NCBI GenBank assembly: GCA_902794155.1
Contig: CADBGN010000011.1
Coordinates: 1 to 46,365, forward strand
Reading direction: 5' to 3'
From: an uncultured Bacteroidia bacterium
GTDB lineage: Bacteria; Bacteroidota; Bacteroidia; Bacteroidales; F082
DNA: 46,365 nt
This document shows, piece after piece, positions 7,241-44,480 of the stretch. The notes below the pieces were generated by a model, which was not told the origin of the DNA, ran no database searches, and was given only the letters and a program-made list of their open reading frames with translations. The position numbers and the translations under genes are program-made. The stretch's first letter is position 1. Every line of letters begins with the position of its first letter.

Positions 7241-7795
7241 AACTACAGATTACACAGATTAAACTGATTTTCGACAGATAATTATGGGGACGCAAGCGTC
7301 CAAATTGGTACAGATGGTTGGAGAAACAAATGGAAACAGATCAGTTTATATATAAAAAAGAAACCTATAACATTATTGGGGCTGCCATGGATGTGCATAG
7401 GACTCTTGGCATGGGATTTCTAGAATCTGTATATCAAGAGGCTATGGAAGTAGAATTGGCAAAGCGAAGTATTCCTTTTGTCTCACAAAAAAGAATTCAA
7501 ATTCAATACAAAGATGTATTATTGAATCAGTATTATGTGTCAGACCTGTTTTGTTATGACAAAATCATAGTTGAATTGAAGGCTGTTTCAACCATTCTTC
7601 CCGAACACGAAGCTCAAATCATCAATTATATCCATGCCACTGGCATAAAATTGGGAATGCTTTTGAATTTTGGAGAAGAAAGTCTTTATTTCAAACGTTT
7701 TCCTAACATCATCCCAAAACCCATCTGTATAAATCCGCAGCTTTAGCTGCTAAATTGCCACGATTCGTTCTGTATAATCTGTATAATCTGTAGTT
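7241..7795. mobile_element. Inverted-repeat element carrying a GxxExxY gene
   Basis: Left end 7241-7261 (AACTACAGATTACACAGATTA) and right end 7775-7795 are inverted copies differing at one of 21 positions. Inside each end is a small hairpin with a two-base loop: GGACGC-AA-GCGTCC at 7288-7301 and GCAGCT-TT-AGCTGC at 7737-7750. A second inverted pair (TACAGATGG) lies at 7309-7317 and 7721-7729. The whole encloses one gene of the GxxExxY family. It starts 8 bases after the ychF stop and ends 10 bases before idi. No transposase is present, so movement would need help from elsewhere. I infer mobility from the architecture and from the related element at 9668-9811. Confidence 0.6.
7330..7746 (+). 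CDS. GxxExxY protein (PD-(D/E)XK nuclease-related family)
   Basis: 138 residues from the ATG at 7330; the TTG four codons upstream is less likely. The naming motif is seen as GFLESVY (Gly-x-x-Glu-x-x-Tyr) about a quarter of the way in, after GAAMDVHRTLGMG. The middle contains VSDLFCYDKIIVELKAV, which has the Asp ... Glu-x-Lys arrangement of PD-(D/E)XK nucleases. The function of the family is not established to my knowledge. The stop codon lies inside the right-hand hairpin of the surrounding inverted-repeat element. The gene is more AT-rich than ychF and idi on either side, which fits acquisition together with the element. Confidence 0.8.
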   Translation: METDQFIYKKETYNIIGAAMDVHRTLGMGFLESVYQEAMEVELAKRSIPFVSQKRIQIQYKDVLLNQYYVSDLFCYDKIIVELKAVSTILPEHEAQIINYIHATGIKLGMLLNFGEESLYFKRFPNIIPKPICINPQL

Positions 7796-22087: not shown

Positions 22088-22468
22088 ATGAAAACAAACA
22101 AAAACAGGGGTAATAATGCCTTACTAATAATGCTGGTAACAAGTCCTATCTGGATTATTTTGTTAGCGTTGCTTGTGAATTATTTAGATGAAAGATACTC
22201 AGCTCCAAAAGTGGAGAAGGTGCGTAATTATCCAAGGTATGAATATCCAGATGATACCATTTTAGCTCACCCGGAAAGAATCCCTAAAAAAGGAGAATCA
22301 ATTATGCCAAGGGTAAATAGCTATGATGGGAACAATGGAGTAGTCTTAACTTTACCTGGTGATAACAAGATAAATACCAACCTGTCTTCTGAGGAAATCT
22401 TAGAACAATTAGACTTTGATTATCAAGATGTCTACGATTACTATGGTGGGGCTGAGGAATTATACTAA
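22088..22468 (+). CDS. Hypothetical single-pass membrane protein
   Basis: 126 residues. One hydrophobic helix lies at about 11-31 (ALLIMLVTSPIWIILLALLV) after a Lys/Asn-rich start, so the C-terminal 95 residues probably face out of the cytoplasm. That part is polar and acidic, ending DFDYQDVYDYYGGAEELY. No family is recognised. Base composition is clearly more AT-rich than the ferritin and rubrerythrin genes, as is the next gene, so the two may have been acquired together. The gap to the next gene is 25 bases. Confidence 0.6.
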   Translation: MKTNKNRGNNALLIMLVTSPIWIILLALLVNYLDERYSAPKVEKVRNYPRYEYPDDTILAHPERIPKKGESIMPRVNSYDGNNGVVLTLPGDNKINTNLSSEEILEQLDFDYQDVYDYYGGAEELY

Positions 22469-22493
22469 TCTATCTTATCTTCATTAAACTGAC

Positions 22494-23000
22494 ATGAAAA
22501 AGAATGATTCAACTATTGTAGAAGGTTTTCCTCCACTAATGTGTCATGAGCCTCGAATATTGCTTTTGGGAACAATACCAGGGAAGAATTCTATTAGTGC
22601 CAATGAGTATTATTATGATAATAGCAATCGGATGTGGAAGATGTTGGCAGAATTATCAACACAAAAATTGCCTACAAATTATACCGAGAAAAAGGTGTTA
22701 TTAGAACACTTGCATGTCGTACTTTGGGATTATTATCAGTTTGTTAAGCGAACTAATAGCACGGATAAAGGTATCCTAGAAGGAACTCCAAACGATATTG
22801 TTGGTTTTGTTAGAAAAAATCCGACTATAACAAAGATAGCCATAAATGGTTATGGAAAATACAAAGAGTTTGGAGAAAAACTACAAAATCAGTTCGGACA
22901 ATCCATCAAAGTGTTTCGTTTGCCAGAAACAAGCGGTCTCAACGCTTCTTGGACTTTAGAAAAACTGTGTAAGGAATGGAGCGTTGTGTTTGAACTATGA
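22494..23000 (+). CDS. Uracil/hypoxanthine-DNA glycosylase family protein
   Basis: 168 residues with the family 6 (hypoxanthine/uracil-DNA glycosylase, HDG) pattern. GFPPLMCHEPRILLLGTIPG comes at the start, then YYYDNSNRMWKML, where relatives have the catalytic or base-contact Asn, and RLPETSGLNAS in place of the usual LPSTSPAN motif. It probably removes deaminated bases from DNA. The second motif is altered (TSGLNA), so activity is uncertain. It lies in an AT-rich pair with the upstream membrane protein. Confidence 0.8.
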   Translation: MKKNDSTIVEGFPPLMCHEPRILLLGTIPGKNSISANEYYYDNSNRMWKMLAELSTQKLPTNYTEKKVLLEHLHVVLWDYYQFVKRTNSTDKGILEGTPNDIVGFVRKNPTITKIAINGYGKYKEFGEKLQNQFGQSIKVFRLPETSGLNASWTLEKLCKEWSVVFEL

Positions 23001-29332: not shown

Positions 29333-32300
29333 CTATGCTTGCAAATAATCCAAATCACTCAGCATTCGAGTGATAACGCTTCGGAAATCAGCCTTAAAGC
29401 CTTCGTTTTGCTGGTACTCTTTGTACAATGAGTTGTCGCCTTTGCGTTTCTTCCTCATAATCTTGTCGATGATGGTTATCATAAGGTCATCAACGGCCTG
29501 TTGGTCAGGATTGCCCACCACCAAGGTCTGGTAATCCTCATCGGCGGCTACAGCTTGTGCGACGCTAACCAATTTCATCTTCTGGTCGTCGGGGGTGGCC
29601 TCCCAGCCGTTGAACCAACGGTTGTTGAACTCTTGAAGGATCACGTCCAGAGGGTCTTTGACTTCCACCTCCGAGCCTGCGTTGACCATCGTTGGCTTCA
29701 GCGGGTCGATGGTGGCCTCTTCGGCATCCAAGGTGATGGCCTCGTTCAAAGCGGTGCGACGCAGTCCGTAGGTGTTCAGATCCACCGAATCCAACAAGTC
29801 TTTCAAGCTGTCGATGTCAGGGCCGGCGATGTGTAGGCCAGGAATGAGATAACGCAAGAACCAGAAGAGCTTTTCCCAGTCTTTCATCTCAAAAGGCATG
29901 ATGGCAGCCACCCGAGAGTAGATTCTCACAAACTGTTTGCACTTCATCTTGAAGTCAGCCTTGCCGTTTTCGGGCCAATCGATCTCAAAGTTGAAACGGT
30001 CGGCGGCGGCATCAATGATGGGTGCCCATTGGTCGGCACTGGCACCGTGAATGTACAAACCGATGAAGGCTTCAACCTCGTCCATATCGAAAACGCCAAA
30101 CGAGAGCAAAGTGTTCTTCAACTCATGCAAGATATTGACATCCGTGGCTTCCGACAAGGTCGTGGAGGTGTAGAACGGGTCAAAGGCTTCCTTGATGTCG
30201 TCCTGGGTGTTGTAGAAGTCAAGGATAAACAAGTCTTCGCTCAGTTTTCCCAAGTCGGGAGCGGAACGGTTGAGACGCGAAAGGGCCTGCACGGCTAACA
30301 CGCCAGCCAAAGGCTTGTCGACATACATGGCACAGAGCTTGGGTTGGTCGAAGCCGGTAAGGTATTTGTTGGCCACCACCAAAATGCGGTAGTCGTCAGA
30401 GTCGAATTTCTCGGCCGTCTGACTATCGGGGAAGCCATTCATACCCGCTTCAGTATAGTCAGACCAAGCAGTTCCGCTTTCTTCGGCAGCGATTGAGCCA
30501 TACAGGTTATCCGTGATGGGATATATCGAGGCCTCTTGGTGCTGAAGGCGTTTCTCGCCACTGAAGGCGATCAGAATCTTGTACGGCAGCTCTTTGTCCA
30601 CCACAATCCGATTCAGCGCCTGATAATACTTGATGGCACATTCAATGTCCTTGGTCACCACCATGGCTTTGGCCTTGCCTTTCATCTTGTGGCTGCGGAA
30701 CACCTTGGCGTCGAAATGGGTCAGCATCACGTCGGCCTTGGCCGCGATGGTCTTCGGGTCGCGCTCCACGGCCCCTCGCAACTTCTTCTGCGCCCGCTCG
30801 TTGTTGTATTCCGGATTGTCCTCGATGCTCTTGGTGAGTTCGTAATAGCTACGATAGGTGGTGTAGTTGGTCAGCACGTCGAGGATGAAGCCTTCCTCAA
30901 TGGCTTGTTTCATGCTGTAGAGATGGTAAGGATGGAACTTGCCTTCGGCATCCTCGCTGCCAAAACGCTCCAGTGTTTCCCTCTTCGGTGTGGCCGTGAA
31001 GGCAAAATAGGAGCAGTTGGTGCTCATCTTGCGGTCTTTCATCAGTTTCTCCAACAAGGCATCGGTGTCGCTACCATCGGTGTCGGCGTCTTTTTGCACC
31101 GTGGCATTGAGTTTGTCGGCGGCGATGCCGCTCTGCGAGCTATGTGCCTCGTCGATGATGACGGCAAAGTTATGGTCGCTCACGTCGCTGATGGCGTCGC
31201 AGATGAAGGGGAACTTCTGTATCGTAGTGATGATGATACGTTTGTTGTTCTCGATGGCTTCCTTCAAATCCTTCGAGGTGTCGGCATGTGCCACGATTTT
31301 GGCGCTTTGCCCGAACATCTTGATGTTGTCGGAAATCTGCTTGTCGAGCAGGCGGCGGTCGGTGACCACGATGACGGAGTTGAACAACGGCGCATCCACG
31401 GCTTTGGCTCTCACCGCCTCCATTGTATTAGGGCAGGTCTTGATGAGTTTGTAAGCCAGCCATGTGAGCGAGTTAGACTTGCCCGAACCGGCAGAATGCT
31501 CGATGAGGTAGGTCTTCCCCACTCCCTTTTCCGCCACATCGTCCACCAACTTGCTTACCACATCCAACTGATGGTAACGCGGGAAGACCAGCTTCTTGGC
31601 GTTCTTCATGATGTGCGGCACCTTCTTCTGGGTCTTGGCCTCGTCGTAGTCGAAGCAGACGTAGTTCATGATGATATCGGCCACGGTGTCCTTTTGCAGG
31701 ATTTGTTCCCACATATACGAGGTCTTGTAGCCACCTTCGGGGTTTGCGGGGTTGCCCGCGCCCTGGCCATTGGGCAGACCCTTGTTGAAAGGCATGAAAT
31801 AGGTCTTGTCTAGGTTGAGACGTGTGGTGAAAAAAACCTCGTCCTTGTCCATGGTGAAATGGGCGAGGCAACGGCCGAAGTTGAGCAAGGTCTCTTTGGG
31901 GTTGCGTTCCGTGGACTTGTATTGCTTCTGACCGTCGTATTTAGCGGTTTGGTGTGTCCAGGGGTTCTTCAGCTCAAAGGTGAAGATAGGCAAACCGTTG
32001 ACGAACAGCACCATGTCAATTTCCAGACCTGGGTTGGCGACCGAGAACGTCTGCTGGCGGGTAAGCGAAAACTGGTTTTGGGCGTATTTCAGCTTTGAGG
32101 TCTCACTGTCGGCTGCCGAGGGCTTGGGGAAGAACAGCGAAAGATGGATATTGTCCACATCCACACCCTCGCGCAGCGCCTTGATGACGCCGAAGGTCTC
32201 AATGTCCTTCGAGATGCGCTTAGGCAGTTCGCTTTTCAGGTCCTTGCCCTTGTATTCTTTCAGCACTTCATGTTGTGTGCTCTCAAGGAAAGCCCACAGC

Positions 32301-32488
32301 CTTCGCAAGTCGATGGCCAGTTTCTTGTCCATGTCCTTGGGCAGGCCCCAATAGTATTGTTGCGCGTTGGGCGACTGGGCTTCCACGTCGTTCTGCCCGC
32401 TCGCCGTGCGTTCCTCGTGGGTGCTGCCCACTAGGGCTTTTTCTATGAGTGCCTCGAAGGCCTGTTCGTTGGTTTTGGATGTATTCAT
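29333..32488 (-). CDS. hsdR: Type I restriction enzyme, R (endonuclease/translocase) subunit
   Basis: 1051 residues. The PD-(D/E)XK nuclease is near the N-terminus, with Asp158 in GLEIDMVLFVNG and Glu172-x-Lys174 in FTFELKN. The helicase-like motor has Walker A HSAGSGKSNS (from about 331), DEAH at 446-449 and TATPKRE after it. The C-terminal helical region binds the methyltransferase core. HsdR cuts unmodified DNA after ATP-driven translocation. It is the last gene of the operon, its ATG overlapping the stop of the AlbA_2 regulator by 4 bases (ATGA). Its first 56 bases occur again, degenerate, at 33933-33988. Confidence 0.97.
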   Translation of the reverse strand: MNTSKTNEQAFEALIEKALVGSTHEERTASGQNDVEAQSPNAQQYYWGLPKDMDKKLAIDLRRLWAFLESTQHEVLKEYKGKDLKSELPKRISKDIETFGVIKALREGVDVDNIHLSLFFPKPSAADSETSKLKYAQNQFSLTRQQTFSVANPGLEIDMVLFVNGLPIFTFELKNPWTHQTAKYDGQKQYKSTERNPKETLLNFGRCLAHFTMDKDEVFFTTRLNLDKTYFMPFNKGLPNGQGAGNPANPEGGYKTSYMWEQILQKDTVADIIMNYVCFDYDEAKTQKKVPHIMKNAKKLVFPRYHQLDVVSKLVDDVAEKGVGKTYLIEHSAGSGKSNSLTWLAYKLIKTCPNTMEAVRAKAVDAPLFNSVIVVTDRRLLDKQISDNIKMFGQSAKIVAHADTSKDLKEAIENNKRIIITTIQKFPFICDAISDVSDHNFAVIIDEAHSSQSGIAADKLNATVQKDADTDGSDTDALLEKLMKDRKMSTNCSYFAFTATPKRETLERFGSEDAEGKFHPYHLYSMKQAIEEGFILDVLTNYTTYRSYYELTKSIEDNPEYNNERAQKKLRGAVERDPKTIAAKADVMLTHFDAKVFRSHKMKGKAKAMVVTKDIECAIKYYQALNRIVVDKELPYKILIAFSGEKRLQHQEASIYPITDNLYGSIAAEESGTAWSDYTEAGMNGFPDSQTAEKFDSDDYRILVVANKYLTGFDQPKLCAMYVDKPLAGVLAVQALSRLNRSAPDLGKLSEDLFILDFYNTQDDIKEAFDPFYTSTTLSEATDVNILHELKNTLLSFGVFDMDEVEAFIGLYIHGASADQWAPIIDAAADRFNFEIDWPENGKADFKMKCKQFVRIYSRVAAIMPFEMKDWEKLFWFLRYLIPGLHIAGPDIDSLKDLLDSVDLNTYGLRRTALNEAITLDAEEATIDPLKPTMVNAGSEVEVKDPLDVILQEFNNRWFNGWEATPDDQKMKLVSVAQAVAADEDYQTLVVGNPDQQAVDDLMITIIDKIMRKKRKGDNSLYKEYQQNEGFKADFRSVITRMLSDLDYLQA

Positions 32489-33879
32489 TTTGTTGATTTT
32501 TCTGATTTTAACACAATCCAGTGTCCTCCTTTGTCGGGGCCATCGCGACGGATAAAACCTTCGGCCTGCATTTCTTTAAGGATTTTCTTAACCGTAGTAT
32601 GCCCTACACCCAATTCATTCTCAAAATCCGAAATTGTAACTCCTTGATTTTGATTTATCATAGACACAATTGTCTCGGCTTTTTCTGGCCACTTTTCTGG
32701 CCACTTTTCTGGCCACTTTTTCTGGTCAATCCCTGTTTCCACCCTGTTTTTCTGGCCACCCTCATTGAACTCTTCATACTCCGCCTCACCCTCTTCAGGA
32801 ATCCAATTGTAGGGCACAATCATGCGAATATAGTTGCCGCCAAACTCAAAATTCTCACGTCCGTATGTGCGCATGATGCGGTTCATGCCTGAGCCAAGCG
32901 ACTCCACCATCTCCACATCGCGGAAAACGCGCATCAACTCCCTGTTGCGAGGCAGACTCACCCCATTGAAAAAGTCTTCTTTGGTCAGACCCAACGGGAT
33001 TCGGCCTATGGAGGTGATTTCCAAACGGTCGGAAAAGAGTTCGATTTTTGAGGGTGCTCCGTAAATGTAGTCATTGTGGACAACAGCATTGATAACCGCC
33101 TCTCTCACTGCGATTTTGTCCCATTGCGGGGTGTCGATGCGCCTTGTCGAGGTAATCACCGACGACACCTTGTTTTCCACGTCCAGCTTGTCAAGCACTT
33201 TCATTGTGGCGGTAATCAAGCAGCAATAGCCGTACTCATTGTTTGAAATAAGGTCGCAACGGTCTTTGCCTGCGTATTTTGCCAACTTCATCGAATTGCC
33301 GTTCTCATCGGCGAGCAAGTATGCCACATAATTGTATTTTCCGTCGTCGGTCATCAAATCAAGCGAACGGATGAAGTTGTCGTTGAGCTGAAATCCTTTT
33401 TCAGTGTAATAGATTTTGAGTTGGGCGAAGGTCAAGTCTTGGCGCGGAGAAACCACATTCTTGAGCGAGTTGTGTACCCTTCGGGCAAAAAGGTCTTCGA
33501 TTTGTTCATTCGTCATTGGCTCGGCTGCCGTACCCACACGGATAAAACAGCCCTTTTCCGAAAGGCCGTAACGTGTTTTGTAATAAGGCTTTTCGCTTCC
33601 ACTGGCGATAAAAATCTTGATAACGGGGATATTGTCGAACTCCTCGACCTTGACATCGAACAATCCCATCGGCGAAGGTGAAATCCCCGTGCGGATGCGA
33701 TCCTTGATTTTCAGCATATCGCCGTCAATGTCCTTCACCCCGACGGCTTTCCCGTCATCATCCACACCGATGTAAATGATTCCGCCTTCCCGGTAGTTGA
33801 GAAACGCCACCACCTCGCGCTCCAAATCAAGCTCGCGCGTCAGTTCCCGTTTGAATTCTATGCGATTTGTCTCCGTCAT
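32485..33879 (-). CDS. AlbA_2 / GHKL-type ATPase / winged-helix regulator within the RM operon
   Basis: 464 residues from the ATG at 33877-33879 (MTETNRIEFKRELTRELDLE). Residues 1 to about 120 are an AlbA_2 (Schlafen-like) domain: LNYREGGIIYIGVDDDGKAVG. The middle is an HATPase_c_4 domain with AVREAVINAVVHNDY and MVESLGSGMNRI. A Lys-Trp-Pro-Glu repeat follows (WPEK three times), then a C-terminal winged helix (FENELGVGHTTVKKILKEMQAEGF). Such proteins are usually called transcriptional regulators. An in-frame GTG at 33910-33912 lies upstream of the -7 box and is rejected; an ATG two codons earlier (33885) is an alternative. It overlaps hsdR, so it may control or sense the restriction subunit. 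Role inferred from position. Confidence 0.82.
   Translation of the reverse strand: MTETNRIEFKRELTRELDLEREVVAFLNYREGGIIYIGVDDDGKAVGVKDIDGDMLKIKDRIRTGISPSPMGLFDVKVEEFDNIPVIKIFIASGSEKPYYKTRYGLSEKGCFIRVGTAAEPMTNEQIEDLFARRVHNSLKNVVSPRQDLTFAQLKIYYTEKGFQLNDNFIRSLDLMTDDGKYNYVAYLLADENGNSMKLAKYAGKDRCDLISNNEYGYCCLITATMKVLDKLDVENKVSSVITSTRRIDTPQWDKIAVREAVINAVVHNDYIYGAPSKIELFSDRLEITSIGRIPLGLTKEDFFNGVSLPRNRELMRVFRDVEMVESLGSGMNRIMRTYGRENFEFGGNYIRMIVPYNWIPEEGEAEYEEFNEGGQKNRVETGIDQKKWPEKWPEKWPEKAETIVSMINQNQGVTISDFENELGVGHTTVKKILKEMQAEGFIRRDGPDKGGHWIVLKSEKSTK
32685..32720 (-). repeat. 12-bp tandem repeat, three copies, in regulator gene
   Basis: Three perfect copies of CTGGCCACTTTT (plus strand) encode Trp-Pro-Glu-Lys in tandem between the ATPase and winged-helix domains. 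A fourth partial copy is at 32751-32758. Copy-number change would alter the linker by four residues without a frameshift. Confidence 0.85.
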
Positions 33880-33901
33880 TTGCATCCTTTGTTCGTCTTT
33901 G

Positions 33902-33909
33902 CAAAAATA
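33902..33909 (-). promoter_or_regulatory. -7 promoter box in front of the AlbA_2 regulator
   Basis: TATTTTTG on the minus strand, 22 bases upstream of the regulator ATG. It would give the regulator and hsdR a promoter separate from the hsdM promoter. Confidence 0.65.
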
Positions 33910-33932
33910 CACTTTTTAGTTGAGTTTCAGCC

Positions 33933-33988
33933 AAGGCTTTCTCTATGAGGGCCTCAAAGGCTTGTTCGTTGGTTTGGCTAGTAGTCAT
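33933..33988 (-). pseudogene. Degenerate second copy of the hsdR 5' end
   Basis: The 56 bases from the ATG at 33986-33988 read MTTSQTNEQAFEALIEKALA, against MNTSKTNEQAFEALIEKALV at the start of hsdR (32433-32488). Roughly four fifths of the bases agree. The frame runs on for about 30 more codons without hsdR similarity and stops inside the regulator gene. It begins 24 bases after the GHKL gene stop, where a normal hsdR start would be expected if the regulator were absent. Confidence 0.8.
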
Positions 33989-34012
33989 ACTAAACACATT
34001 ATTCAATTGAAA

Positions 34013-37000
34013 TCACTTTACATCTTTCATACTTATCTTCTGTTCGATAACGCCTTTAATTCTATTAATTAAATCATCAAAAGTAGGTGTGTCCTTTGGC
34101 TTAAACAATTCTTGCGGAACCGTTAGGCTATAACTACCCCCAATGTGGGGTCGCTCTTTTGTCTGTTGGACACTTTCAATGCACCATTCATTTCTTTTTC
34201 CTATGTCGTGAAGAACTTTTGTATGATTAAGGCATGTCCCAATATCATCATATTCTCTTTCACCAACATCATTGGTGTTTTTCCATGTCATATCCACAAA
34301 ACAAAGAGAATAGTTTTCTTTATGATCCACGGAATTCTTAAACTGCATTGGGCTCATCTCCACAACATCACTGGTCGTCCATCTCGATTTCACTTCAACA
34401 TAGTAAATCTCTTCCCCTCCAAGCCGCACTATGTAGTCTTGGCCACCTTGTTGATCACTAACTTCTACTTCAAGGTCAATATCGTTGATTTGTTCTTTCA
34501 ACTGTTCCAAAAGCAAGTTCTCTACATATTGGCCAAGTTCACGGATAAAGCAATCGTGTTTATATTGGAAATCAAGCAGAGTTACCGCTTTCAATCCTTC
34601 CTCAATAATTTTATCCATTTTTTCATTCGCAGCCAAATCTGCAAGTTTTTTTAGTTTTTCTTCGTCGCTGGTAGCCAAATCTGCAAGCTTTTCCAACTTG
34701 CTCTCTTCGGTTTTCATTATGGTATAAACATGTGCCTTTTGTCGACCTTGTATTCGATTTAAGAATATATTGGCTTTATTGTCGTTGATGTTAGAGAACC
34801 AGTAGCACCATATTTCTTCTTGATGGTCTAAATGGTCAAGAATCTGCATAAAAGTATTCGGAACATAATTTTTCGATTTAAGTTCCTCGTCAATAGTATT
34901 GGCAATCGACTTAGTACTTTCTGTTTGGAATGATTGAAAACATGCAAAACGTTCATCGACCCAATAATCGCGTTTGTCCTCGCCCACTACATCTATGTAA
35001 AAAGTGCATAGATCATCTATATCAGATTTTTCATGTGAATGGCTGGGGTCGTTTTCCAATACAAACAGCGAAGATGGTTCGCAAAGCTTGCCATTTTGAT
35101 TGGGAAAGATGGCATAATCTGGCATAATTTTGCTCTGATACAAAGTAGGTCGATCTATGTTACTCAACGATTTAATCAGATTGAACAAATAGTTTGAGTT
35201 TTGTTCTTCTTTATACCAATTCTCATTTTGATTGGCTTCTGAGACGATTTGTCGGAATTCGTATTTAACAAGTGCATCAAATACCACCTTATACATAAGT
35301 TGTTCTTTATCCACGTCTCCAAGGTGTGGAACATAATTGACTGCGAATTGCACATCTTGGTATTTTTCACAGATAATACTTATAGCTTTGTAACGGTCGT
35401 TGTTCTCAGGATTACTGGTAGGGAATGTCATGCAAAAACGCAACACGTCAGGAAGCTGGTCTTTAAAGGGAATTTCTTTCTGTTCTTGCTCTTCGACATA
35501 TTTTGAAAGTGCCGTCTTCAGGTCGTCTCGGGTAGATGGAGCAAACTCATCCAATTTAACAAAATCCACGTCAATTAACTTAGAAGTAAACTCTGGCACC
35601 AATGTTTTGCAAACATTATACAATTCATTAGGGATGTCTTTGCCATCTCGCAAGCCACTAAAAGAACATAAATTCCCTTCCCTGTTAGGGATAATTGCTT
35701 TTGTCTTGAAATAGTGGCTTTGACCGCTTGCCTTAAGATATTCTAAGAATCGCAACAGTGTTTCTCTATCTCTCATCGACTTGATCTGCTCAACAATTGC
35801 CTCTATGGTAACGTACCATTTTGTTTCATCAGGATTCCATTGATATACTATATCTGACCATTCAACGATTTGTTCCTTCTTGGGTAGAGAAGATACCATG
35901 CTGGCATATTCATAAACCACATCCAAATATTTCCAGTTTTCATCTTGTTTAAGGAACTCCACGATGTTATGGTCAAGTACTTTTACCTTATCTGTTTGCT
36001 CAATACTAACATTACCGTCATTCAATTCAATCAAAGGAAGATTTTTGAACACTTCCACCCATGCTTCATGGCGACTCCTAAAAAACTCCATCGTTTTTTC
36101 CTTGTGCAGTGCCATGTCAAATCCGATTGGGGCAAGATAGATGGAATTCTTGATTTGCTTTGCATGCTCCTTCAGATAATCAAACAACATAGAGCTCATC
36201 TCTTTCAATACCTCAACATCATTATCTATTTTGTACTGATGCTCTGCATTGCCATCGGGTAAAACAATAAGATCACGAGATTCTGTTGGAAAAAAGCGTT
36301 CAGAATGAAAAACGTAATTTATGGAATTCACTTCCGTGCCTAATAATGGAAAGAAAATGAACAATCGTGGGACCAAGTCCATTTTTTTAGCCTCTAAGGC
36401 TTTTTTGAGAGGAAGTATTATGATGTCTTTATTATCATCAGACTGTAAATAGAAGCAATCAATCGGAATTTCATTTTTCCAAATCCTCATCACATGCAGC
36501 CCCTCTACGTCTTCTTGTTGTTCTTTTTTGAACACAGTGACGTTGCCATCTTTATCTTTAATGCTGCATTCAACAATTCGTTCATTGAAAGTCATCACAT
36601 AAGGCATAAGATCCATTGCAGATTTAACTCCTTGTTGAGCTGCTTTTTTACGATCTTCATTATCTGTCAAATATACGAATTCAGTCCATTCTTCTTTGGT
36701 TGAAGACGTATCCTTTTCCATCAGCTTATTGACATTTAACAATTGCTGAGTCATTGCATCACGCATCGATGATAATTCATCCGCACTTCTATCTATTATA
36801 AACTCATCAAGACTGACATATGTATTGGGGGCTACTTCATACGATCCGTTTATATACAACTTGCGGCTAAATTTATGTGTGGTCATAAAGCCTGTTCCAA
36901 ACTGGCCAGCAGCATCAGGGTCTTCTTTCTCTTCCGAAGAAACCTGTTTTATCAGCGATGACAAACAATCAAAATTGAAATGTTTGCCGTTATGAGCAAA

Positions 37001-37237
37001 CGACAGCTTGTCTTCAGTCAAGACAATTCTAACACTAACTTGCTTCTTTCCTCCTTTCTCATCAGCCAAGTCTCGTGCGTTTTGCACCAATTCCCATATA
37101 GCTCGATGAGCCGTGTTTTCGTCAAATTTGCCAATACCTTGAAGGATCTTCAGACAATGTTGTTTGGTGTCTTGTCGAAGGGATTTTTTGTCATTATTTT
37201 CTTGAATAGTCTTTCTAGTTTGTTCGTCAAGTATCAT
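34013..37237 (-). CDS. Sacsin-like GHKL ATPase with C-terminal DUF3883-type nuclease domain
   Basis: 1074 residues. The N-terminus is a GHKL ATP-binding fold of the sacsin/NOV type: ELVQNARD (residues 49-56; Glu and Asn of the N-box), HNGKHF (82-87) and GQFGTGF (111-117). A long helical middle of unknown fold follows. Near residues 840-890 a short internal repeat occurs (EKLADLATSDEEKLKKLADLA). Residues about 920-1000 match DUF3883: GGQDYIV then EIYYVEVKSRW, with the Asp ... Glu-x-Lys spacing of PD-(D/E)XK nucleases. The gene is more AT-rich than hsdM and hsdR. Its place between hsdS and the regulator suggests an extra DNA-targeting effector coupled to the RM system. Activity untested and role inferred. 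Confidence 0.78.
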   Translation of the reverse strand: MILDEQTRKTIQENNDKKSLRQDTKQHCLKILQGIGKFDENTAHRAIWELVQNARDLADEKGGKKQVSVRIVLTEDKLSFAHNGKHFNFDCLSSLIKQVSSEEKEDPDAAGQFGTGFMTTHKFSRKLYINGSYEVAPNTYVSLDEFIIDRSADELSSMRDAMTQQLLNVNKLMEKDTSSTKEEWTEFVYLTDNEDRKKAAQQGVKSAMDLMPYVMTFNERIVECSIKDKDGNVTVFKKEQQEDVEGLHVMRIWKNEIPIDCFYLQSDDNKDIIILPLKKALEAKKMDLVPRLFIFFPLLGTEVNSINYVFHSERFFPTESRDLIVLPDGNAEHQYKIDNDVEVLKEMSSMLFDYLKEHAKQIKNSIYLAPIGFDMALHKEKTMEFFRSRHEAWVEVFKNLPLIELNDGNVSIEQTDKVKVLDHNIVEFLKQDENWKYLDVVYEYASMVSSLPKKEQIVEWSDIVYQWNPDETKWYVTIEAIVEQIKSMRDRETLLRFLEYLKASGQSHYFKTKAIIPNREGNLCSFSGLRDGKDIPNELYNVCKTLVPEFTSKLIDVDFVKLDEFAPSTRDDLKTALSKYVEEQEQKEIPFKDQLPDVLRFCMTFPTSNPENNDRYKAISIICEKYQDVQFAVNYVPHLGDVDKEQLMYKVVFDALVKYEFRQIVSEANQNENWYKEEQNSNYLFNLIKSLSNIDRPTLYQSKIMPDYAIFPNQNGKLCEPSSLFVLENDPSHSHEKSDIDDLCTFYIDVVGEDKRDYWVDERFACFQSFQTESTKSIANTIDEELKSKNYVPNTFMQILDHLDHQEEIWCYWFSNINDNKANIFLNRIQGRQKAHVYTIMKTEESKLEKLADLATSDEEKLKKLADLAANEKMDKIIEEGLKAVTLLDFQYKHDCFIRELGQYVENLLLEQLKEQINDIDLEVEVSDQQGGQDYIVRLGGEEIYYVEVKSRWTTSDVVEMSPMQFKNSVDHKENYSLCFVDMTWKNTNDVGEREYDDIGTCLNHTKVLHDIGKRNEWCIESVQQTKERPHIGGSYSLTVPQELFKPKDTPTFDDLINRIKGVIEQKISMKDVK

Positions 37238-37278
37238 AAAACCATCATTTTTTACTGGTTCATTTTAGTTGAATTTCA

Positions 37279-37335
37279 TTACATATCTTCCCATACAGCT
37301 TTAGCAAAGTGTTTTGTATATCTAAAAAACGTCAT
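37279..37335 (-). CDS. Possible 18-codon micro-ORF overlapping hsdS stop
   Basis: The hsdS stop overlaps an ATG (ATGA), from which MTFFRYTKHFAKAVWEDM reads to a stop in the 94-base gap before the GHKL gene. The overlap geometry is typical of coupled genes, but length and lack of homologues make it doubtful. It may be a remnant of a lost gene. Confidence 0.25.
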   Translation of the reverse strand: MTFFRYTKHFAKAVWEDM

Positions 37336-38672
37336 ACCACCTTCACCTTTCCCGTCACCACTTCATTGATGATAATCTGCTTCCGCTCCTGAAGGAGGGA
37401 GATTTGCTTCATTTTACTATTTAGACATAAGTCTATTTCATTAATCTCTCGCTTCAAATAATTGGCTATGTTACATTGTTCTTGTAAAGGAGGCAACAAA
37501 ACAGGTAAACCTCTCAATAATTGCTGACTTAGAGAAGCACGAATAACAAGATTCATTTCCTTTACAAAATATGAACGATGGATATGTGCTCTAAAATAAT
37601 ACATAGAGAAATTCGGGTCTAATATACCTGCCTGAGGTCTAAATCTAATTAGAAATCCTGCAAACACAGCATTAGGGATAGTTTCTAAACAAGTACTTGT
37701 AAAACCGATTTCTTCTGCTGTTTCAGAAGTTCTTGTAAAAAACACATCTCCCTTCTCAACAGAGAAAACCATTCTTTCCTGTATTGAAGATTTTGCAAGA
37801 CCTGAAACGGACTTTGGTAATGAATAGTTCTTATATACATCTGAATAATTGACAAAAGGCTCTCCCTCTCCAAAATAAGAAGAATCATGGCTCACACCAT
37901 TTATTGTTGAACCTATTGTACCAAGTTTTCGAATATCCCAATGTTCCGGCACCTCTCCAATCCATTCCACGCCGCTGTCCTTCATTTTCGCATTGGGATT
38001 GAGGCCTTTGGTTACGGCACGGTTGATGATGATTTGCTTGCGCTCGTTCAAGAGCTCGATCATCTTCTGCTGCTGCGCTATGGCGGCGTCTATCTTCGAG
38101 GTGGCGGTGTCGAGGTAGGCGGCGATGGCGGTTTGCTCTTCAAGTGGCGGAAGAAAAACCGTTTGATTTAGGTATTCCTTGATTTTTAAATTTTGAATAC
38201 CAGTTGTCTGATTATAAAAGAGTCCATTAACTTTCTTTGTATACATTGTACTAAGTAGGTAACAAAGAAATGAACTACAGTATTTTTGAGAAGGTGATAG
38301 TTTTTGAATAAAATTTGAGCAAGTCGTCTTACCCAAATCTAAATTAAACCTTACAACACGTCCAACAGGGAATAGCTCTCCACCTCCTGATTTTTCAAGA
38401 AGCAAATCTCCTTTTGTTAGTTTCTTGTTTTCAGATAGCAGATTACCATAACTCCTCAATGTGAGATGTTCAGTTTTTATACTGAATTTTGAATAGTCAA
38501 AGTCTGCTACTCTGATACATATTGCATCATCATCGTTTTGTTTTGGGTCATCCCCCCACAAACCCGATTCTGAACTTATAAAGCACTTCTTCAATGGTAT
38601 AGATTCCCAATGGCTTGGAATCTCTCCGAGCCATTTCACGCCGCTGTCCTTGTATGTATCGTATCGTTGCAT
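37332..38672 (-). CDS. hsdS: Type I restriction enzyme, S (specificity) subunit
   Basis: 446 residues with two target-recognition domains. Each begins with the same phrase: KDSGVKWLGEIPSHW near the start and KDSGVEWIGEVPEHW at about residue 230. Each ends in a conserved helical spacer: LPPLEEQTAIAAYLDTATSK ... LNERKQIIINRAVTKGL and LPPLQEQCNIANYLKREI ... LQERKQIIINEVVTGKV. HsdS sets the DNA sequence recognised by HsdM and HsdR. The variable halves are visibly more AT-rich than the central spacer, as expected for swapped domains. A 15-base direct repeat (CACGCCGCTGTCCTT) lies at 37968-37982 and 38637-38651. It starts 5 bases after hsdM. Confidence 0.95.
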   Translation of the reverse strand: MQRYDTYKDSGVKWLGEIPSHWESIPLKKCFISSESGLWGDDPKQNDDDAICIRVADFDYSKFSIKTEHLTLRSYGNLLSENKKLTKGDLLLEKSGGGELFPVGRVVRFNLDLGKTTCSNFIQKLSPSQKYCSSFLCYLLSTMYTKKVNGLFYNQTTGIQNLKIKEYLNQTVFLPPLEEQTAIAAYLDTATSKIDAAIAQQQKMIELLNERKQIIINRAVTKGLNPNAKMKDSGVEWIGEVPEHWDIRKLGTIGSTINGVSHDSSYFGEGEPFVNYSDVYKNYSLPKSVSGLAKSSIQERMVFSVEKGDVFFTRTSETAEEIGFTSTCLETIPNAVFAGFLIRFRPQAGILDPNFSMYYFRAHIHRSYFVKEMNLVIRASLSQQLLRGLPVLLPPLQEQCNIANYLKREINEIDLCLNSKMKQISLLQERKQIIINEVVTGKVKVV

Positions 38673-38677
38673 AAGGC

Positions 38678-41008
38678 TTACATCAGATTAAACAATGACT
38701 GGATAAACCCTTGGCTCTGGCGGTCGAGTTCGAGGATGTCGCGCTCGTTCTCTTCAAGGGTGCGCAGCGGCACAGGCTTGTAGAAATACTTGTTGAACGA
38801 GATTTCGCAGCCTATCTTGGTCGGCGGCAGGTTGATCCACGCATCGGCTACGTAGGGGCGCACCTCGCGCTGGAAATATGTGTAGATGTCTTCCTTCACG
38901 GGAATCTTCTCCGTGTCGCGCAGGTCGCTGTCACTTTCGTATTCAACATATTGGCACACATAGCTTCCCTTCTCGCCAGGATAATAGCCATAGTCCGCCA
39001 AACGCTTCTCATCCACACCGAAGGTAGTCTGCAGTTTCTCCACCTCCTTGCTGCCCACTTTGTGTTGTTTCTTGACGACGGGAGCGGCCTCGGGGTCGGT
39101 CACCGACATGGCACGGGCGATGGCATTCAACTTGTTGCCTTTCACGTCCATCTTCAATGCCTTGGCAGCAGCCTCAATCTTGGCGACAAACTGGTTGTAG
39201 TCCATGAAGACCTCTGTGCCGATGGCATGCATCAGTTGTTTGGCCGCATCCATCAACTCGCGGCGGCCCTGCCATTCCTTGACGCTGATGAGTTTCGCCA
39301 GTTTCTTGTCGGTCAGCTTTATCTCGTTGTCGTTCAAATACTCCTTGATGTCCGGGATTACAGCGTCCAAACCTTCAAACACTTGGTTGCCGTAAGTCTG
39401 GTACAGCCATTTCGAGAGTTCGAGTTCGCCATTGTCGTAAAGCATCTCATCGATTTTCAGGGCGTTGAACTGGCTCTTCAAGCGCAACGGCCGCTCGATG
39501 GTGACATTGTAGAAGCGGAAGTCGTCGCCGTCGAAAATCTTGGAGGCCACCTTGTCGCCATCGGCTTCCTTTTCCACGAAGTCCATGTAGGTCTTCAGGA
39601 TGGTCGAACGATGTTCGGGCGTGATGGTGCAGTTGCGCGAGCCTTGGTTTTTCCTCAATTTTTCAAAGGCCTGCGAAGCGTCAATCAGTTGCACCTTGCC
39701 CTTGCGGTTTTCGACTTTCTTGTTGGTGAGCAGCCAAACGTATGTAGTGATGCCCGTGTTGTAGAAGATGTTGTTTGGCAATTGGATGATGGCATCCACC
39801 AGGTCATTCTCAATCAGATAGCGACGGATGTTGCTCTCGCCGCTGCCCGCATCGCCCGTAAACAATGACGACCCGTTGTGAATGGAAGCCACGCGGCTGC
39901 CTTGGGGCTGGAACTCCAAAGGTTTCATCTTGTCGACTTCTTCGAGCATAAACAGCAGTTGTCCGTCGGAAGTGCGTGGTGTGCTGTCAAGCACCTCTTC
40001 TTCGCCGGCGAAATTGGTCAACGGCAGTTCAAAACGGTGGTCGAGCAGCGTCTTCTCGTGGTAAATCTTCTCCTTGTCGGTCTTCCACGACTTGCCATAA
40101 GGCGGATTGGTGATCATATAGCCAAACGACTTGTCGGAAAAGGCGTTGTCAGTGATGGTGTTGCCCAAGTGCATCCCACCCGGGTCAACGCCCTTGATAA
40201 TCAAGTCGGACTTGCAAATGGCGTAGGTCTCCGGGTTGATTTCGGTTCCCGAAAGTTGGATGGCCGCACTCCTGACGCCAATATCCATAAGGTATTCGCG
40301 GCTTTCCGTCAACATTCCACCAGAGCCACAAGCCGGGTCGTACAACGAGATAATCTTGGGGAGGTTGTTCTTCACGGGTTCAAAAACAAGGTGAGCCAAC
40401 AGCGAGATGGCATCACGGGGCGTAAAGTGTTCGCCTGCTTCCTCGTTGTTCTCCTCGTTGAAGCGACGCAGCAACTCCTCAAACACGGTGCCCATGCCGA
40501 TGTTAGTCATGGCGGGCAGCATGATGCCATCGGGGTCTTTCACCTCCTTATCCGTCAAGTTGATGCGCGGGTCGGTGATTTTCTCAATGATAGACAAGAG
40601 TCTATCGTTATCAGCCAGTTTGCGTGCCTTGTTGTAATACTCGAAGTTCTTCAGCACATCGCGCACGTTCTCGCTGAAGCCGTTGAGGTATTCAATGAAA
40701 TTATCGTAAAGGATGTCATTATTGTCCGAAGCCTGTGATTTCAGTCGGTTCAGCGTCCATTTGCTGGTGTTGAAGAAACTCAAGCCTGTGATGTCTTTCA
40801 ACACGCCCTCGTCCAGATTCTCCAGCCCGCTTTCCTTGATTTCCTGTTCCACTTCTTCCTTGGTAGGCTCAAGCAAGGCATCCAAACGGCGCAACACCAC
40901 CATGGGCAAAATTACATCACGATATTGGCCACGCAAAAACACATCGCGCAGCACATCGTCGGCAATCGACCAAATAAAAGAGACTATTTGATTATGAGAG
41001 GTTTCCAT
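38678..41008 (-). CDS. hsdM: Type I restriction enzyme, M (N6-adenine methyltransferase) subunit
   Basis: 776 residues. The HsdM N-terminal helical domain opens METSHNQIVSFIWSIADDVL. The SAM-binding motif I is DPACGSGG (224-231), with GTEINPE after it, and the catalytic NPPY lies at 301-304 (gamma-type N6-adenine methylase). The C-terminal 250 residues are longer than in the E. coli enzyme and contain RELMDAAKQLMHAIGTEVFM and PYVADAWINLPPTKIG, a form seen in many Bacteroidota systems. It methylates the host DNA at the sites chosen by HsdS. First gene of the operon; its -7 box is about 30 bases upstream. Confidence 0.96.
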   Translation of the reverse strand: METSHNQIVSFIWSIADDVLRDVFLRGQYRDVILPMVVLRRLDALLEPTKEEVEQEIKESGLENLDEGVLKDITGLSFFNTSKWTLNRLKSQASDNNDILYDNFIEYLNGFSENVRDVLKNFEYYNKARKLADNDRLLSIIEKITDPRINLTDKEVKDPDGIMLPAMTNIGMGTVFEELLRRFNEENNEEAGEHFTPRDAISLLAHLVFEPVKNNLPKIISLYDPACGSGGMLTESREYLMDIGVRSAAIQLSGTEINPETYAICKSDLIIKGVDPGGMHLGNTITDNAFSDKSFGYMITNPPYGKSWKTDKEKIYHEKTLLDHRFELPLTNFAGEEEVLDSTPRTSDGQLLFMLEEVDKMKPLEFQPQGSRVASIHNGSSLFTGDAGSGESNIRRYLIENDLVDAIIQLPNNIFYNTGITTYVWLLTNKKVENRKGKVQLIDASQAFEKLRKNQGSRNCTITPEHRSTILKTYMDFVEKEADGDKVASKIFDGDDFRFYNVTIERPLRLKSQFNALKIDEMLYDNGELELSKWLYQTYGNQVFEGLDAVIPDIKEYLNDNEIKLTDKKLAKLISVKEWQGRRELMDAAKQLMHAIGTEVFMDYNQFVAKIEAAAKALKMDVKGNKLNAIARAMSVTDPEAAPVVKKQHKVGSKEVEKLQTTFGVDEKRLADYGYYPGEKGSYVCQYVEYESDSDLRDTEKIPVKEDIYTYFQREVRPYVADAWINLPPTKIGCEISFNKYFYKPVPLRTLEENERDILELDRQSQGFIQSLFNLM

Positions 41009-44370: not shown

Positions 44371-44480
44371 ATCCCCCTTTGTCCTCATTGCGGGCTTGAC
44401 CCGCAATCTCCCAAACGATAGAGACTCATCTCCGCGCTTGGGAGATGGCGGATGTTCCTCCGCCATGAGGGAAAAGGGGT
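44371..44480. repeat. Three-hairpin cloverleaf repeat element
   Basis: The outer stem pairs CCCCCTTTGTCCTCAT (44373-44388) with ATGAGGGAAAAGGGGT (44465-44480), three positions imperfect. Inside are three back-to-back hairpins: TTGCGGG/CCCGCAA (44388-44406), TCTCCCAA/TTGGGAGA (44407-44414 with 44438-44445), and TGGCGGA/TCCGCCA (44446-44452 with 44459-44465). The first contains TTGCGGGCTTGACCCGCAA, a motif I recall as an interspersed repeat in other bacteria. It may also end transcription from both sides. Confidence 0.65.

What the first reader, a model, noticed from the sequence alone, without database searches (positions are those of the whole stretch)
29333..41008. Type I RM operon with two embedded accessory genes: a sacsin-like GHKL ATPase/DUF3883 nuclease and an AlbA_2 ATPase regulator
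All five genes lie on one strand with short gaps or overlaps, in the order M, S, GHKL-nuclease, regulator, R. The GHKL protein has intact ATP-site motifs (ELVQNARD, HNGKHF, GQFGTGF) and an Asp ... Glu-x-Lys end, so it looks like an ATP-gated nuclease of its own. Two different GHKL-type ATPases in one RM operon is unusual. I infer a combined defence module in which the extra nuclease backs up or replaces restriction when phage evade HsdR, and the AlbA_2 protein sets HsdR level through coupled translation.
Basis: partly seen in the sequence, partly recalled or inferred. Interest (0 to 1): 0.75.

Follow-up and report, generated by a model that had tools for sequence, protein, structure and literature searches.

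The report
Restriction operon with swappable antiviral genes
A bacterial DNA-restriction operon carries two extra, probably antiviral genes in a slot whose contents differ in related strains, and a leftover gene fragment beside them suggests how such genes were swapped in.

Summary
The five genes exist as described, at the stated coordinates. The GHKL protein is a full-length match to PADLOC's TmtA profile (Tiamat, a single-gene anti-phage system, name recalled). The "AlbA_2 regulator" has the architecture of Schlafen-family predicted RNases that sit beside BREX systems. Neither is fixed in this operon. Twelve other genus genomes carry a close hsdM (83-99%; two only in part). In the ten whose hsdM-to-hsdR interval I could read, none has Tiamat, and the genes there vary: PIN, ApeA-HEPN, PD-T4-4, YhcG, Fic, Schlafen. 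The gap between the two accessory genes holds a 58-nt remnant of a different hsdR 5' end. So Tiamat once stood directly before an hsdR, as it does in two other families. I read the locus as a type I RM operon used as a recombination platform for exchangeable defence genes, not one integrated machine. Embedding defence genes in type I RM operons is already known; Tiamat as occupant and the recombination remnant appear new in what I searched. Tiamat's nuclease domain has its motif but no confirmed fold. Activity is untested.

The parts
38678..41008 (-). hsdM, 776 aa, type I N6-adenine methyltransferase (DPACGSGG and NPPY motifs)
   Evidence: Pfam N6_Mtase 182 bits and HsdM_N 91 bits; PADLOC MTase_I E 4.4e-245; NCBIfam TIGR00497 101.8 bits, below its cut-off 242.75
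37332..38672 (-). hsdS, 446 aa, specificity subunit; differs between strains apart from conserved 5' end, centre and 3' end
   Evidence: Pfam Methylase_S, two stretches; PADLOC Specificity_I E 1.5e-106; nucleotide blocks
34013..37237 (-). TmtA (Tiamat) homologue, 1074 aa: N-terminal GHKL (Hsp90/sacsin-like) ATPase, long middle, C-terminal predicted PD-(D/E)xK nuclease
   Evidence: PADLOC TmtA PDLC03967 E 2e-212, residues 10-1066 against profile 3-1062 of 1063
36833..37123 (-). GHKL ATP-binding domain (residues 39-135)
   Evidence: HATPase_c 19.0 bits, below cut-off 26.4; NCBIfam P_loop_sacsin 69.8 bits, cut-off 50; motifs conserved in relatives
34292..34522 (-). NOV_C-like C-terminal domain (residues 906-982), E..D..ExK motif
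   Evidence: NOV_C 20.6 bits, just below cut-off 22.1; 7 of 12 homologues match at E<=0.01, best 1.3e-6; E906, D934, E948, K950 invariant in 12
33931..33988 (-). 58-nt remnant (stub) of the 5' end of an hsdR allele other than the resident one, 24 nt after the tmtA stop
   Evidence: 47 of 58 identical to resident hsdR 5' end, next best place in the window 30 of 58; 53 of 58 to hsdR of genome G012; same stub-to-A joint in genome G807
32485..33912 (-). Schlafen-family AlbA_2 + HATPase_c_4 + winged-helix protein, 475 aa as listed (start more likely ATG 33885 or 33879)
   Evidence: Pfam SLFN_AlbA_2 76.7 bits, HATPase_c_4 54.3 bits, MarR-type wHTH below cut-off; E14, E19 and GVDDD near the Schlafen active-site positions
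29333..32488 (-). hsdR, 1051 aa, restriction/translocase subunit (Walker A AGSGKS, DEAH, D..ELK)
   Evidence: SWI2_SNF2, T1R_D3-like, ResIII and HSDR_N above Pfam cut-offs; TIGR00348 202 bits, below its cut-off 284.55

Best explanation
This is a mobile type I RM operon. Its fixed parts (hsdM, the conserved segments of hsdS, and hsdR) flank a slot in which anti-phage genes are exchanged by recombination between operons. Here the slot holds Tiamat and a Schlafen-family predicted RNase. SHOWN by sequence: the families, the intact motifs, turnover of the slot content among close relatives, hsdM and hsdR more alike than a core gene in several genomes, and an hsdR fragment left between the two cargo genes. 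INFERRED: HsdM2S methylates the host and HsdR cuts unmethylated DNA. Tiamat is an independent second layer, in which a phage-borne trigger makes the GHKL domain close with ATP and activates the C-terminal nuclease. The Schlafen protein is a third, possibly suicidal, RNA-cutting layer. Sharing one operon gives co-transfer and co-expression rather than a physical complex. Tiamat arrived in a block shaped hsdS-tmtA-hsdR, which recombined into an operon of the shape hsdS-Schlafen-hsdR and left the first 58 nt of the old hsdR as a remnant.
For: Full-length TmtA profile match. 12 genomes besides the window's own, among 99 genus genomes searched, carry hsdM at 83-99% identity; G010 and G022 only in part. 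Ten of the 12 show hsdM, hsdS and an hsdR start or remnant in one fetched stretch; with the window they hold 9 different gene sets in 11 operons, none of the others with Tiamat. Genome G820 has hsdM-Fic-hsdS-Schlafen-hsdR with Schlafen 94% and HsdR 91% identical, and no Tiamat. In the eight of these ten without a Schlafen gene, nucleotide homology resumes at the hsdR start codon (six) or within 13 nt of it (G627, G018). hsdM and hsdR are far closer at nucleotide level than guaA in several genomes: G813 95.2 and 94.6 against 79.5; G774 95.2 and 92.8 against 81.8; G819 95.2 and 93.4 against 83.4. The stub, and the same joint in G807. hsdS 3'-end stubs before ApeA in G627 and G802, keeping the 4-nt stop/start overlap of intact hsdS-ApeA pairs. 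S-T-R operons in G061 and G1024. Across the class, 19 of 20 complete hsdM-to-hsdR intervals hold at least one ORF besides hsdS.
Against: No activity was tested. The genomes are mostly incomplete assemblies (window genome 88.6% complete, 205 contigs). G802, G018 and G807 give little evidence for horizontal transfer (hsdM nt identity 94.1, 85.5, 85.4 against guaA 89.3, 83.1, 83.0; G802 also arginine deiminase 93.2), and G014 goes the other way (77.1 against 81.8). Protein identities alone were ambiguous (guaA 90-97%). The nuclease fold was not confirmed: AlphaFold mean pLDDT 34 (whole) and 46 (C-terminus), no PDB fold match at E<=0.001, no credible PDB profile match. Repeated S-T-R embedding leaves room for a functional link.
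Confidence: 0.72

Rival explanations
1. PrrC-type guard: Tiamat is held silent by the RM complex and is released when a phage anti-restriction protein disables HsdR or HsdM, so the operon is one integrated two-stage machine.
For: Tiamat lies between hsdS and hsdR in three operons of the same hsdM/hsdR subfamily (window, G061, G1024), directly after an hsdS-like gene in G1102, and near an HsdR fragment in G040. On the tree the embedded label (first four) needs 4 changes, at least 3 forced by supported branches. PrrC in EcoprrI is the tested precedent (passages of PMC12707154).
Against: The closest relative, L005, has no RM genes beside it; 26 of 32 loci have no BLAST hit to the window's Hsd proteins; 10 of 10 readable close operons do without Tiamat. 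No PrrC-like domains.
Confidence: 0.17
2. The Schlafen-type gene is a transcription regulator that sets HsdR level through coupled translation.
For: C-terminal winged helix (below cut-off); its stop overlaps the hsdR start by 4 nt here and in G820; a Bacteroidota-like -7 box TATTTTTG stands upstream in the window, G807, G820 and G022 (box recalled).
Against: Eight of the ten readable close operons have no Schlafen gene, six with the PD-T4-4 pair before hsdR, so HsdR does not need it. The architecture equals Schlafen RNases listed as backup effectors. The promoter evidence is weak: 4 of the 14 relaxed matches in the window fall in this stretch.
Confidence: 0.2
3. Tiamat acts as an Hsp90/sacsin-like chaperone that assembles or protects the large RM complex; its C-terminal domain binds DNA without cutting.
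For: Sacsin-type ATP-binding domain above cut-off; only Hsp90 ATPase domains appear, weakly, in the PDB profile search (E 0.019 at best).
Against: E..D..ExK invariant in 12 divergent homologues; occurrence away from RM genes; 10 of the 14 homologues without the nuclease domain have a candidate effector gene nearby instead.
Confidence: 0.08
4. Assembly chimera: the Tiamat block was joined to the RM operon wrongly.
For: Fragmented assembly; tmtA and hsdS are 38-39% GC against 52-53% for hsdM and hsdR.
Against: The stub-to-Schlafen joint is seen independently in G807; S-T-R operons exist in two other families; low GC is shared with hsdS, which is a normal part.
Confidence: 0.03

Closest known systems
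Tiamat (TmtA) single-gene defence system
   Same: Full-length profile match, GHKL domain, long middle, C-terminal nuclease-like domain
   Different: Sits inside a type I RM operon; passages seen list Tiamat in Pseudomonas island hotspots and as mostly chromosomal in Actinobacteria (PMC12629846, PMC10482375). Phage protection recalled from Millman 2022, seen only as a citation.
TgvAB inside the Vibrio cholerae VPI-2 type I RM operon
   Same: Two defence genes embedded in a five-gene type I RM operon; protection did not need HsdR nuclease activity (passages of PMC11411939)
   Different: GmrSD-type modification-dependent system; here a GHKL nuclease and a Schlafen-type gene
DarTG2 between hsdS and hsdR (EPEC RRDM island)
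   Same: Defence genes at the same position; the authors call the site a potential recombination hotspot (passages of PMC12255303)
   Different: Toxin-antitoxin cargo, RptR repressor; no recombination remnants in the passages seen
PrrC in EcoprrI; rlo and mlo genes of Campylobacter jejuni hsd loci
   Same: Accessory genes inside type I RM loci; rlo between hsdR and hsdS, mlo between hsdS and hsdM; extensive rearrangement within hsd families (passages of PMC12707154, PMC5183652)
   Different: PrrC is a tRNA nuclease guarded by the RM enzyme; no PrrC-like domains here
Schlafen-type backup effectors of BREX
   Same: Schlafen domain + minimal histidine-kinase domain + wHTH (passages of PMC12839542)
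   Different: Here beside a type I RM enzyme and overlapping hsdR
Shedu-type VcSduA (GHKL + PD-(D/E)xK)
   Same: GHKL domain hypothesised to control a C-terminal PD-(D/E)xK nuclease (passages of PMC12137116)
   Different: Nuclease is DUF4263; here NOV_C-like, with no Shedu profile match

Membership tests
Tiamat (TmtA) | Full-length match to the TmtA profile | tested here: met
   E 2e-212, residues 10-1066; that TmtA is Tiamat is recalled
Tiamat (TmtA) | Intact GHKL motifs | tested here: met
   Invariant core residues in 12 homologues; recognisable in 29 of 30 aligned, the other being cut at its N-terminus
Tiamat (TmtA) | Protection against phage | not testable with these tools
   No experiment
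PD-(D/E)xK nuclease | E..D..ExK motif | tested here: met
   E906, D934, E948, K950 invariant in 12
PD-(D/E)xK nuclease | Restriction-endonuclease fold | tested here: inconclusive
   NOV_C below cut-off; model pLDDT 46, strands in a suggestive order, no fold match
Type I RM | HsdM, HsdS and HsdR with catalytic motifs | tested here: met
   Pfam and PADLOC matches; motifs read. TIGR00348 and TIGR00497 below their cut-offs
Type I RM | Site-specific methylation and restriction | not testable with these tools
   No methylome or transformation data
PrrC/RloC guard | ABC-type ATPase with HEPN tRNA nuclease | tested here: not met
   No such domain in either accessory protein
PrrC/RloC guard | Gene inside a type I RM locus | tested here: met
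Schlafen-family RNase | SLFN AlbA_2 domain | tested here: met
   76.7 bits, cut-off 25.3
Schlafen-family RNase | Two Glu and one Asp of the Schlafen13 active site | tested here: inconclusive
   Glu pair with spacing 5 and downstream Asp residues present; position equivalence judged by eye, no Schlafen13 sequence aligned
Schlafen-family RNase | RNA cleavage | not testable with these tools
   No experiment
Shedu | DUF4263 nuclease domain | tested here: not met
   No Shedu or DUF4263 match
MADS / BREX | Core MAD or Brx genes in the operon | tested here: not met
   Only cross-matches of hsdM and hsdS, far below NCBIfam cut-offs

The most novel reading that the evidence does not exclude
Type I RM operons act as defence-exchange platforms. 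hsdM/hsdS and the 5' end of hsdR are the homology arms through which whole defence blocks are swapped between species, leaving hsdR and hsdS stubs as a readable record. In parallel, Tiamat is a modular sensor whose effector is exchangeable: a fused nuclease in 17 of 31 homologues, and in 10 of the 14 homologues without it a separate gene nearby instead (six AlbA_2, one of them with a TIR domain and two with sub-threshold HEPN matches; four AAA ATPases).
Probability: 0.4. Interest if true: 0.72.

Novelty: new member of a known kind. Interest (0 to 1): 0.52.

Why it matters
If right, an RM operon is not only a weapon but a carrier that lets bacteria trade whole antiviral genes while keeping a conserved enzyme around them. 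The gene stubs make the trading history readable and testable, and can be searched for in other genomes. The Tiamat comparison gives a concrete mechanism to test (GHKL sensor, interchangeable effector) for a defence gene that one paper lists among systems of unknown mechanism (PMC10482375 passage).

Tried and rejected
Searching for "TmtA" in papers gave only unrelated uses among the 20 of 35 listed. Single-protein scans found few relatives: 1 locus in genome contigs, 3 distant plasmid matches, none in phages; an alignment query found 1 viral contig. In the first sample of 60 genomes (own included, 35 others of the genus), only the window's own genome had a full-length match. PDB searches by sequence gave no useful relative of Tiamat; the A2 profile matched designed repeat proteins, and the Schlafen-type protein matched one uncharacterised structure, 3lmm. 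AlphaFold with two sequences failed for the whole protein (pLDDT 34) and was poor for the C-terminus (46); Foldseek gave nothing at E<=0.001. Protein identity of a single slow marker was ambiguous as evidence for horizontal transfer (guaA 90-97%; the faster arginine deiminase 67-98%), so I used nucleotide identity. A Tiamat/AlbA_2 pair as the reason for T next to A in the window was rejected: the stub separates them, and G820 has A without T.

Dropped before counts: places matching only the GHKL or only the nuclease part of the profile were not examined for context, although five such stretches were fetched (L043, L044, L045, L073, L074); L035 and L133 (broken copies) were left out of the tree and of the domain count, L071 and L136 out of the tree; genome G956 (1 of 23 class matches other than the window's own) was not fetched; L145 and L155 end before hsdR and are not in the interval count.

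Full report
OBSERVATION. The five ORFs are intact, on one strand and at the stated coordinates. Pfam, PADLOC and NCBIfam identify hsdM, hsdS and hsdR (the NCBIfam hsdM and hsdR models score below their cut-offs). The 1074-residue protein is a full-length match to PADLOC's TmtA profile (E 2e-212), which I recall as the single gene of the Tiamat system. Its GHKL domain is of the sacsin type (NCBIfam 69.8 bits, cut-off 50). Its C-terminus matches NOV_C just below cut-off (20.6 against 22.1); 7 of 12 homologues match NOV_C at E<=0.01, and E906, D934, E948 and K950 are invariant in the 12. The 475-residue protein is SLFN_AlbA_2 + HATPase_c_4 + winged helix.

THE SLOT. A search of 99 genus genomes (own included) with HsdM found 12 others with a close copy (83-99%), G010 and G022 only in part. 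I fetched all 12. Two cannot be read through to hsdR (G010 ends inside hsdM; the G807 contig ends after the Schlafen remnant). In the other ten, hsdM and hsdR are conserved but the interval is not: PIN_8, a 1233-residue protein without Pfam match, the PD-T4-4 A/B pair, ApeA-HEPN, YhcG/DUF1016, Fic and Schlafen-type genes occur in different combinations. With the window this is nine different sets in eleven operons (G819 and G813 share one, G820 and G022 another); G022 is a decayed copy. None of the ten has Tiamat. Nucleotide homology covers hsdM, the first ~70 nt of hsdS, the hsdS centre and 3' end, then resumes at the hsdR start codon in six and within 13 nt of it in two (G627, G018); G820 and G022 share the Schlafen gene as well. 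G820 is the informative neighbour: hsdM-Fic-hsdS-Schlafen-hsdR, without Tiamat.

MOBILITY. At nucleotide level, hsdM and hsdR against guaA are 95.2 and 94.6 against 79.5 (G813), 95.2 and 92.8 against 81.8 (G774), 95.2 and 93.4 against 83.4 (G819), 95.4 and 92.0 against 85.8 (G627), 91.8 and 85.8 against 83.4 (G820), 91.7 and 86.0 against 83.7 (G012); G010 has hsdM 86.7 (part of the gene) against 80.9. G802 (94.1, 92.6 against 89.3), G018 (85.5 against 83.1) and G807 (85.4 against 83.0) give little signal, and G014 goes the other way (77.1, 75.1 against 81.8). G022 hsdM was not measured. A second marker, arginine deiminase, measured in 8 of the 12, gives 71.2-93.2. Of six window flank genes, two lie beside the operon in G774, G802, G018 and G807 and none in the stretch fetched from the other eight, so the operon also changes site.

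THE STUB. The gap between Tiamat and the Schlafen-type gene holds, at 33988-33931, the first 58 nt of an hsdR gene. It agrees with the resident hsdR at 47 of 58 positions (the next best place in the window scores 30) and with the hsdR of G012 at 53 of 58. In a search of 99 genus genomes with this stretch, 13 matched (own included); the window's genome is the only one with two places. G807 has the same joint from stub to Schlafen gene, but another cargo gene (525 aa) in front. Stubs of the hsdS 3' end stand before ApeA in G627 and G802 (82-85% identity), and keep the 4-nt overlap that intact hsdS-ApeA pairs show in G819 and G813. I read these as joints left by recombination between operons with different cargo. 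They imply that Tiamat once stood directly before an hsdR. That arrangement exists in two other families: G061 (hsdM 49%, Tiamat 27%, hsdR 50%) and G1024 (51%, 27%, 53%).

HOW GENERAL. In a class-wide sample, 24 of 295 genomes had an HsdM match at E<=1e-100, the window's own included. I examined 22 of the 23 others: 20 fetched plus G061 and G1024. Twenty have hsdM and an hsdR start in one stretch, and 19 of these hold at least one ORF of 90 codons or more besides hsdS. The threshold is mechanical, some small ORFs may not be genes, and a few operons have broken subunits (for example L144). Tiamat is in 2 of 20; a Schlafen/AlbA_2 relative by BLAST in 7 of 20, some weak.

TIAMAT CONTEXTS. Profile searches gave matches in samples of phylum, order and class (24 of 395 and 29 of 344 genomes at E<=0.001; 15 of 395 at E<=1e-40; the samples overlap). 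I looked at 32 loci including the window and L005, some on short contigs (L049 and L135 show almost no context). Tiamat lies between hsdS and hsdR in three (window, G061, G1024), directly after an hsdS-like gene in one (G1102, order R-S-T, no hsdM found beside it), and in G040 an HsdR C-terminal part lies nearby. 26 of 32 have no BLAST hit to the window's Hsd proteins; G561 has only a weak HsdM-like hit; BLAST missed the G1102 HsdR, so more may exist. Other neighbours scanned include a NACHT protein, a SMODS synthetase and a sub-threshold Wadjet JetD match, as expected of defence islands. On a tree of 29 the embedded label (four rows, G040 not counted) needs 4 changes, at least 3 forced by supported branches, and is no more clustered than shuffled labels. 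So embedding is recurrent, not one frozen event; within the seven-member clade holding three of the four, gain and loss cannot be told apart.

A SIDE RESULT. A profile of the C-terminal nuclease matches 17 of 31 Tiamat homologues and is absent from 14 (the profile was built from 12 of these proteins). Of the 14 without it, six have an AlbA_2 gene after them (five by Pfam, L136 by BLAST; one carries TIR, two have HEPN matches below Pfam's cut-off; in L131 it is 0.8 kb away) and four an AAA ATPase gene (two by Pfam, two by BLAST). I saw no such partner beside the 17, other than the window's own Schlafen gene; this rests on reading and BLAST and a Pfam scan of nine neighbours of eight of them, and L049 and L135 show no neighbours. 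Fisher's exact p is 2e-5, or 3.5e-4 with the window counted as partnered. Relatedness makes this optimistic: the AlbA_2 label and the AAA label each need only 2 changes, and two of the fourteen (L040, L131) are short ORFs. It suggests a GHKL sensor with an exchangeable effector. One viral-contig record (L136) has DUF1016, hsdR, an unknown gene, a Tiamat without nuclease and an AlbA_2 gene in a row.

THE SCHLAFEN-TYPE GENE. [quoted passage not shown] that is the domain order found here. Passages of PMC5862951 name E205, E210 and D248 of rat Schlafen13. The window protein has E14 and E19 at the same spacing and GVDDD downstream; several Tiamat partners keep the Glu pair but lack the Asp. I therefore favour effector over regulator, without excluding the latter.

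COMPARISON WITH THE LITERATURE. Defence genes embedded in type I RM operons are known: PrrC, rlo/mlo genes, TgvAB, DarTG2, whose authors suggest a recombination hotspot, and the guilt-by-embedding approach of Payne 2024, seen only as a citation. GHKL proteins in RM operons are known. I saw no report of Tiamat inside a type I RM operon, of hsdR stubs, or of two-gene Tiamats in paper searches; most of their hits were seen as listings only, and that library lacks most subscription papers and preprints. Thirteen papers were opened for passages; none was read in full.

VERDICT. The reading as one combined module is not the best. The locus is a new occupant and a well-preserved example of a known arrangement, with unusually direct sequence evidence of how cargo is exchanged. 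Function of every part is inferred.

Noticed in passing
L107:11821-11760 and L109:10221-10272: Stubs of the hsdS 3' end (82-85% identity) stand directly before the ApeA-HEPN gene, after the PIN gene, keeping a 4-nt overlap with its start.
   Followed up: yes
L036, L037, L038, L131, L132, L136: Tiamat homologues without the C-terminal nuclease are followed by an AlbA_2 gene, one with TIR and two with sub-threshold HEPN matches; not met in the papers I searched.
   Followed up: partly
L042, L069, L070, L071: Tiamat homologues without the nuclease are followed by an AAA_21/AAA_15-type ATPase gene and, in L042, L069 and L071, a small gene (sub-threshold DUF4276 match in L042).
   Followed up: partly
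L105:8506-12207, also L106 and L108: A 1233-residue cargo protein with no Pfam match and only a weak PADLOC match to PD-Lambda-4_A, in three of the close operons: a candidate unknown defence gene.
   Followed up: partly
L113:416-1993: A 525-residue cargo protein with only weak NTPase matches, followed by the same hsdR stub joint as in the window.
   Followed up: partly
L116, between the hsdS end (12747) and the Schlafen remnant: Tandem variants of a short unit resembling TTTTGGGGGATTTGACAAAA stand upstream of the Schlafen remnant; a related unit is in L111.
   Followed up: no
L127:7433-8239 and L125:6733-8511: Neighbours of Tiamat homologues: a SMODS nucleotide synthetase (CBASS-like) before one, a NACHT protein before another.
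   Followed up: partly
window 22088-23000 and 7318-7746: Small genes at 35-36% GC among neighbours near 50%, possibly acquired.
   Followed up: no
window 44381-44471: ARAGORN reports a tRNA-Ala with anticodon AGC, 91 nt long; perhaps a false call (Rfam found nothing above threshold).
   Followed up: no
L142:7297-8252: A pair resembling a RES-type toxin-antitoxin (my reading of the sequences, no profile search) lies between hsdS and hsdR in another family.
   Followed up: no
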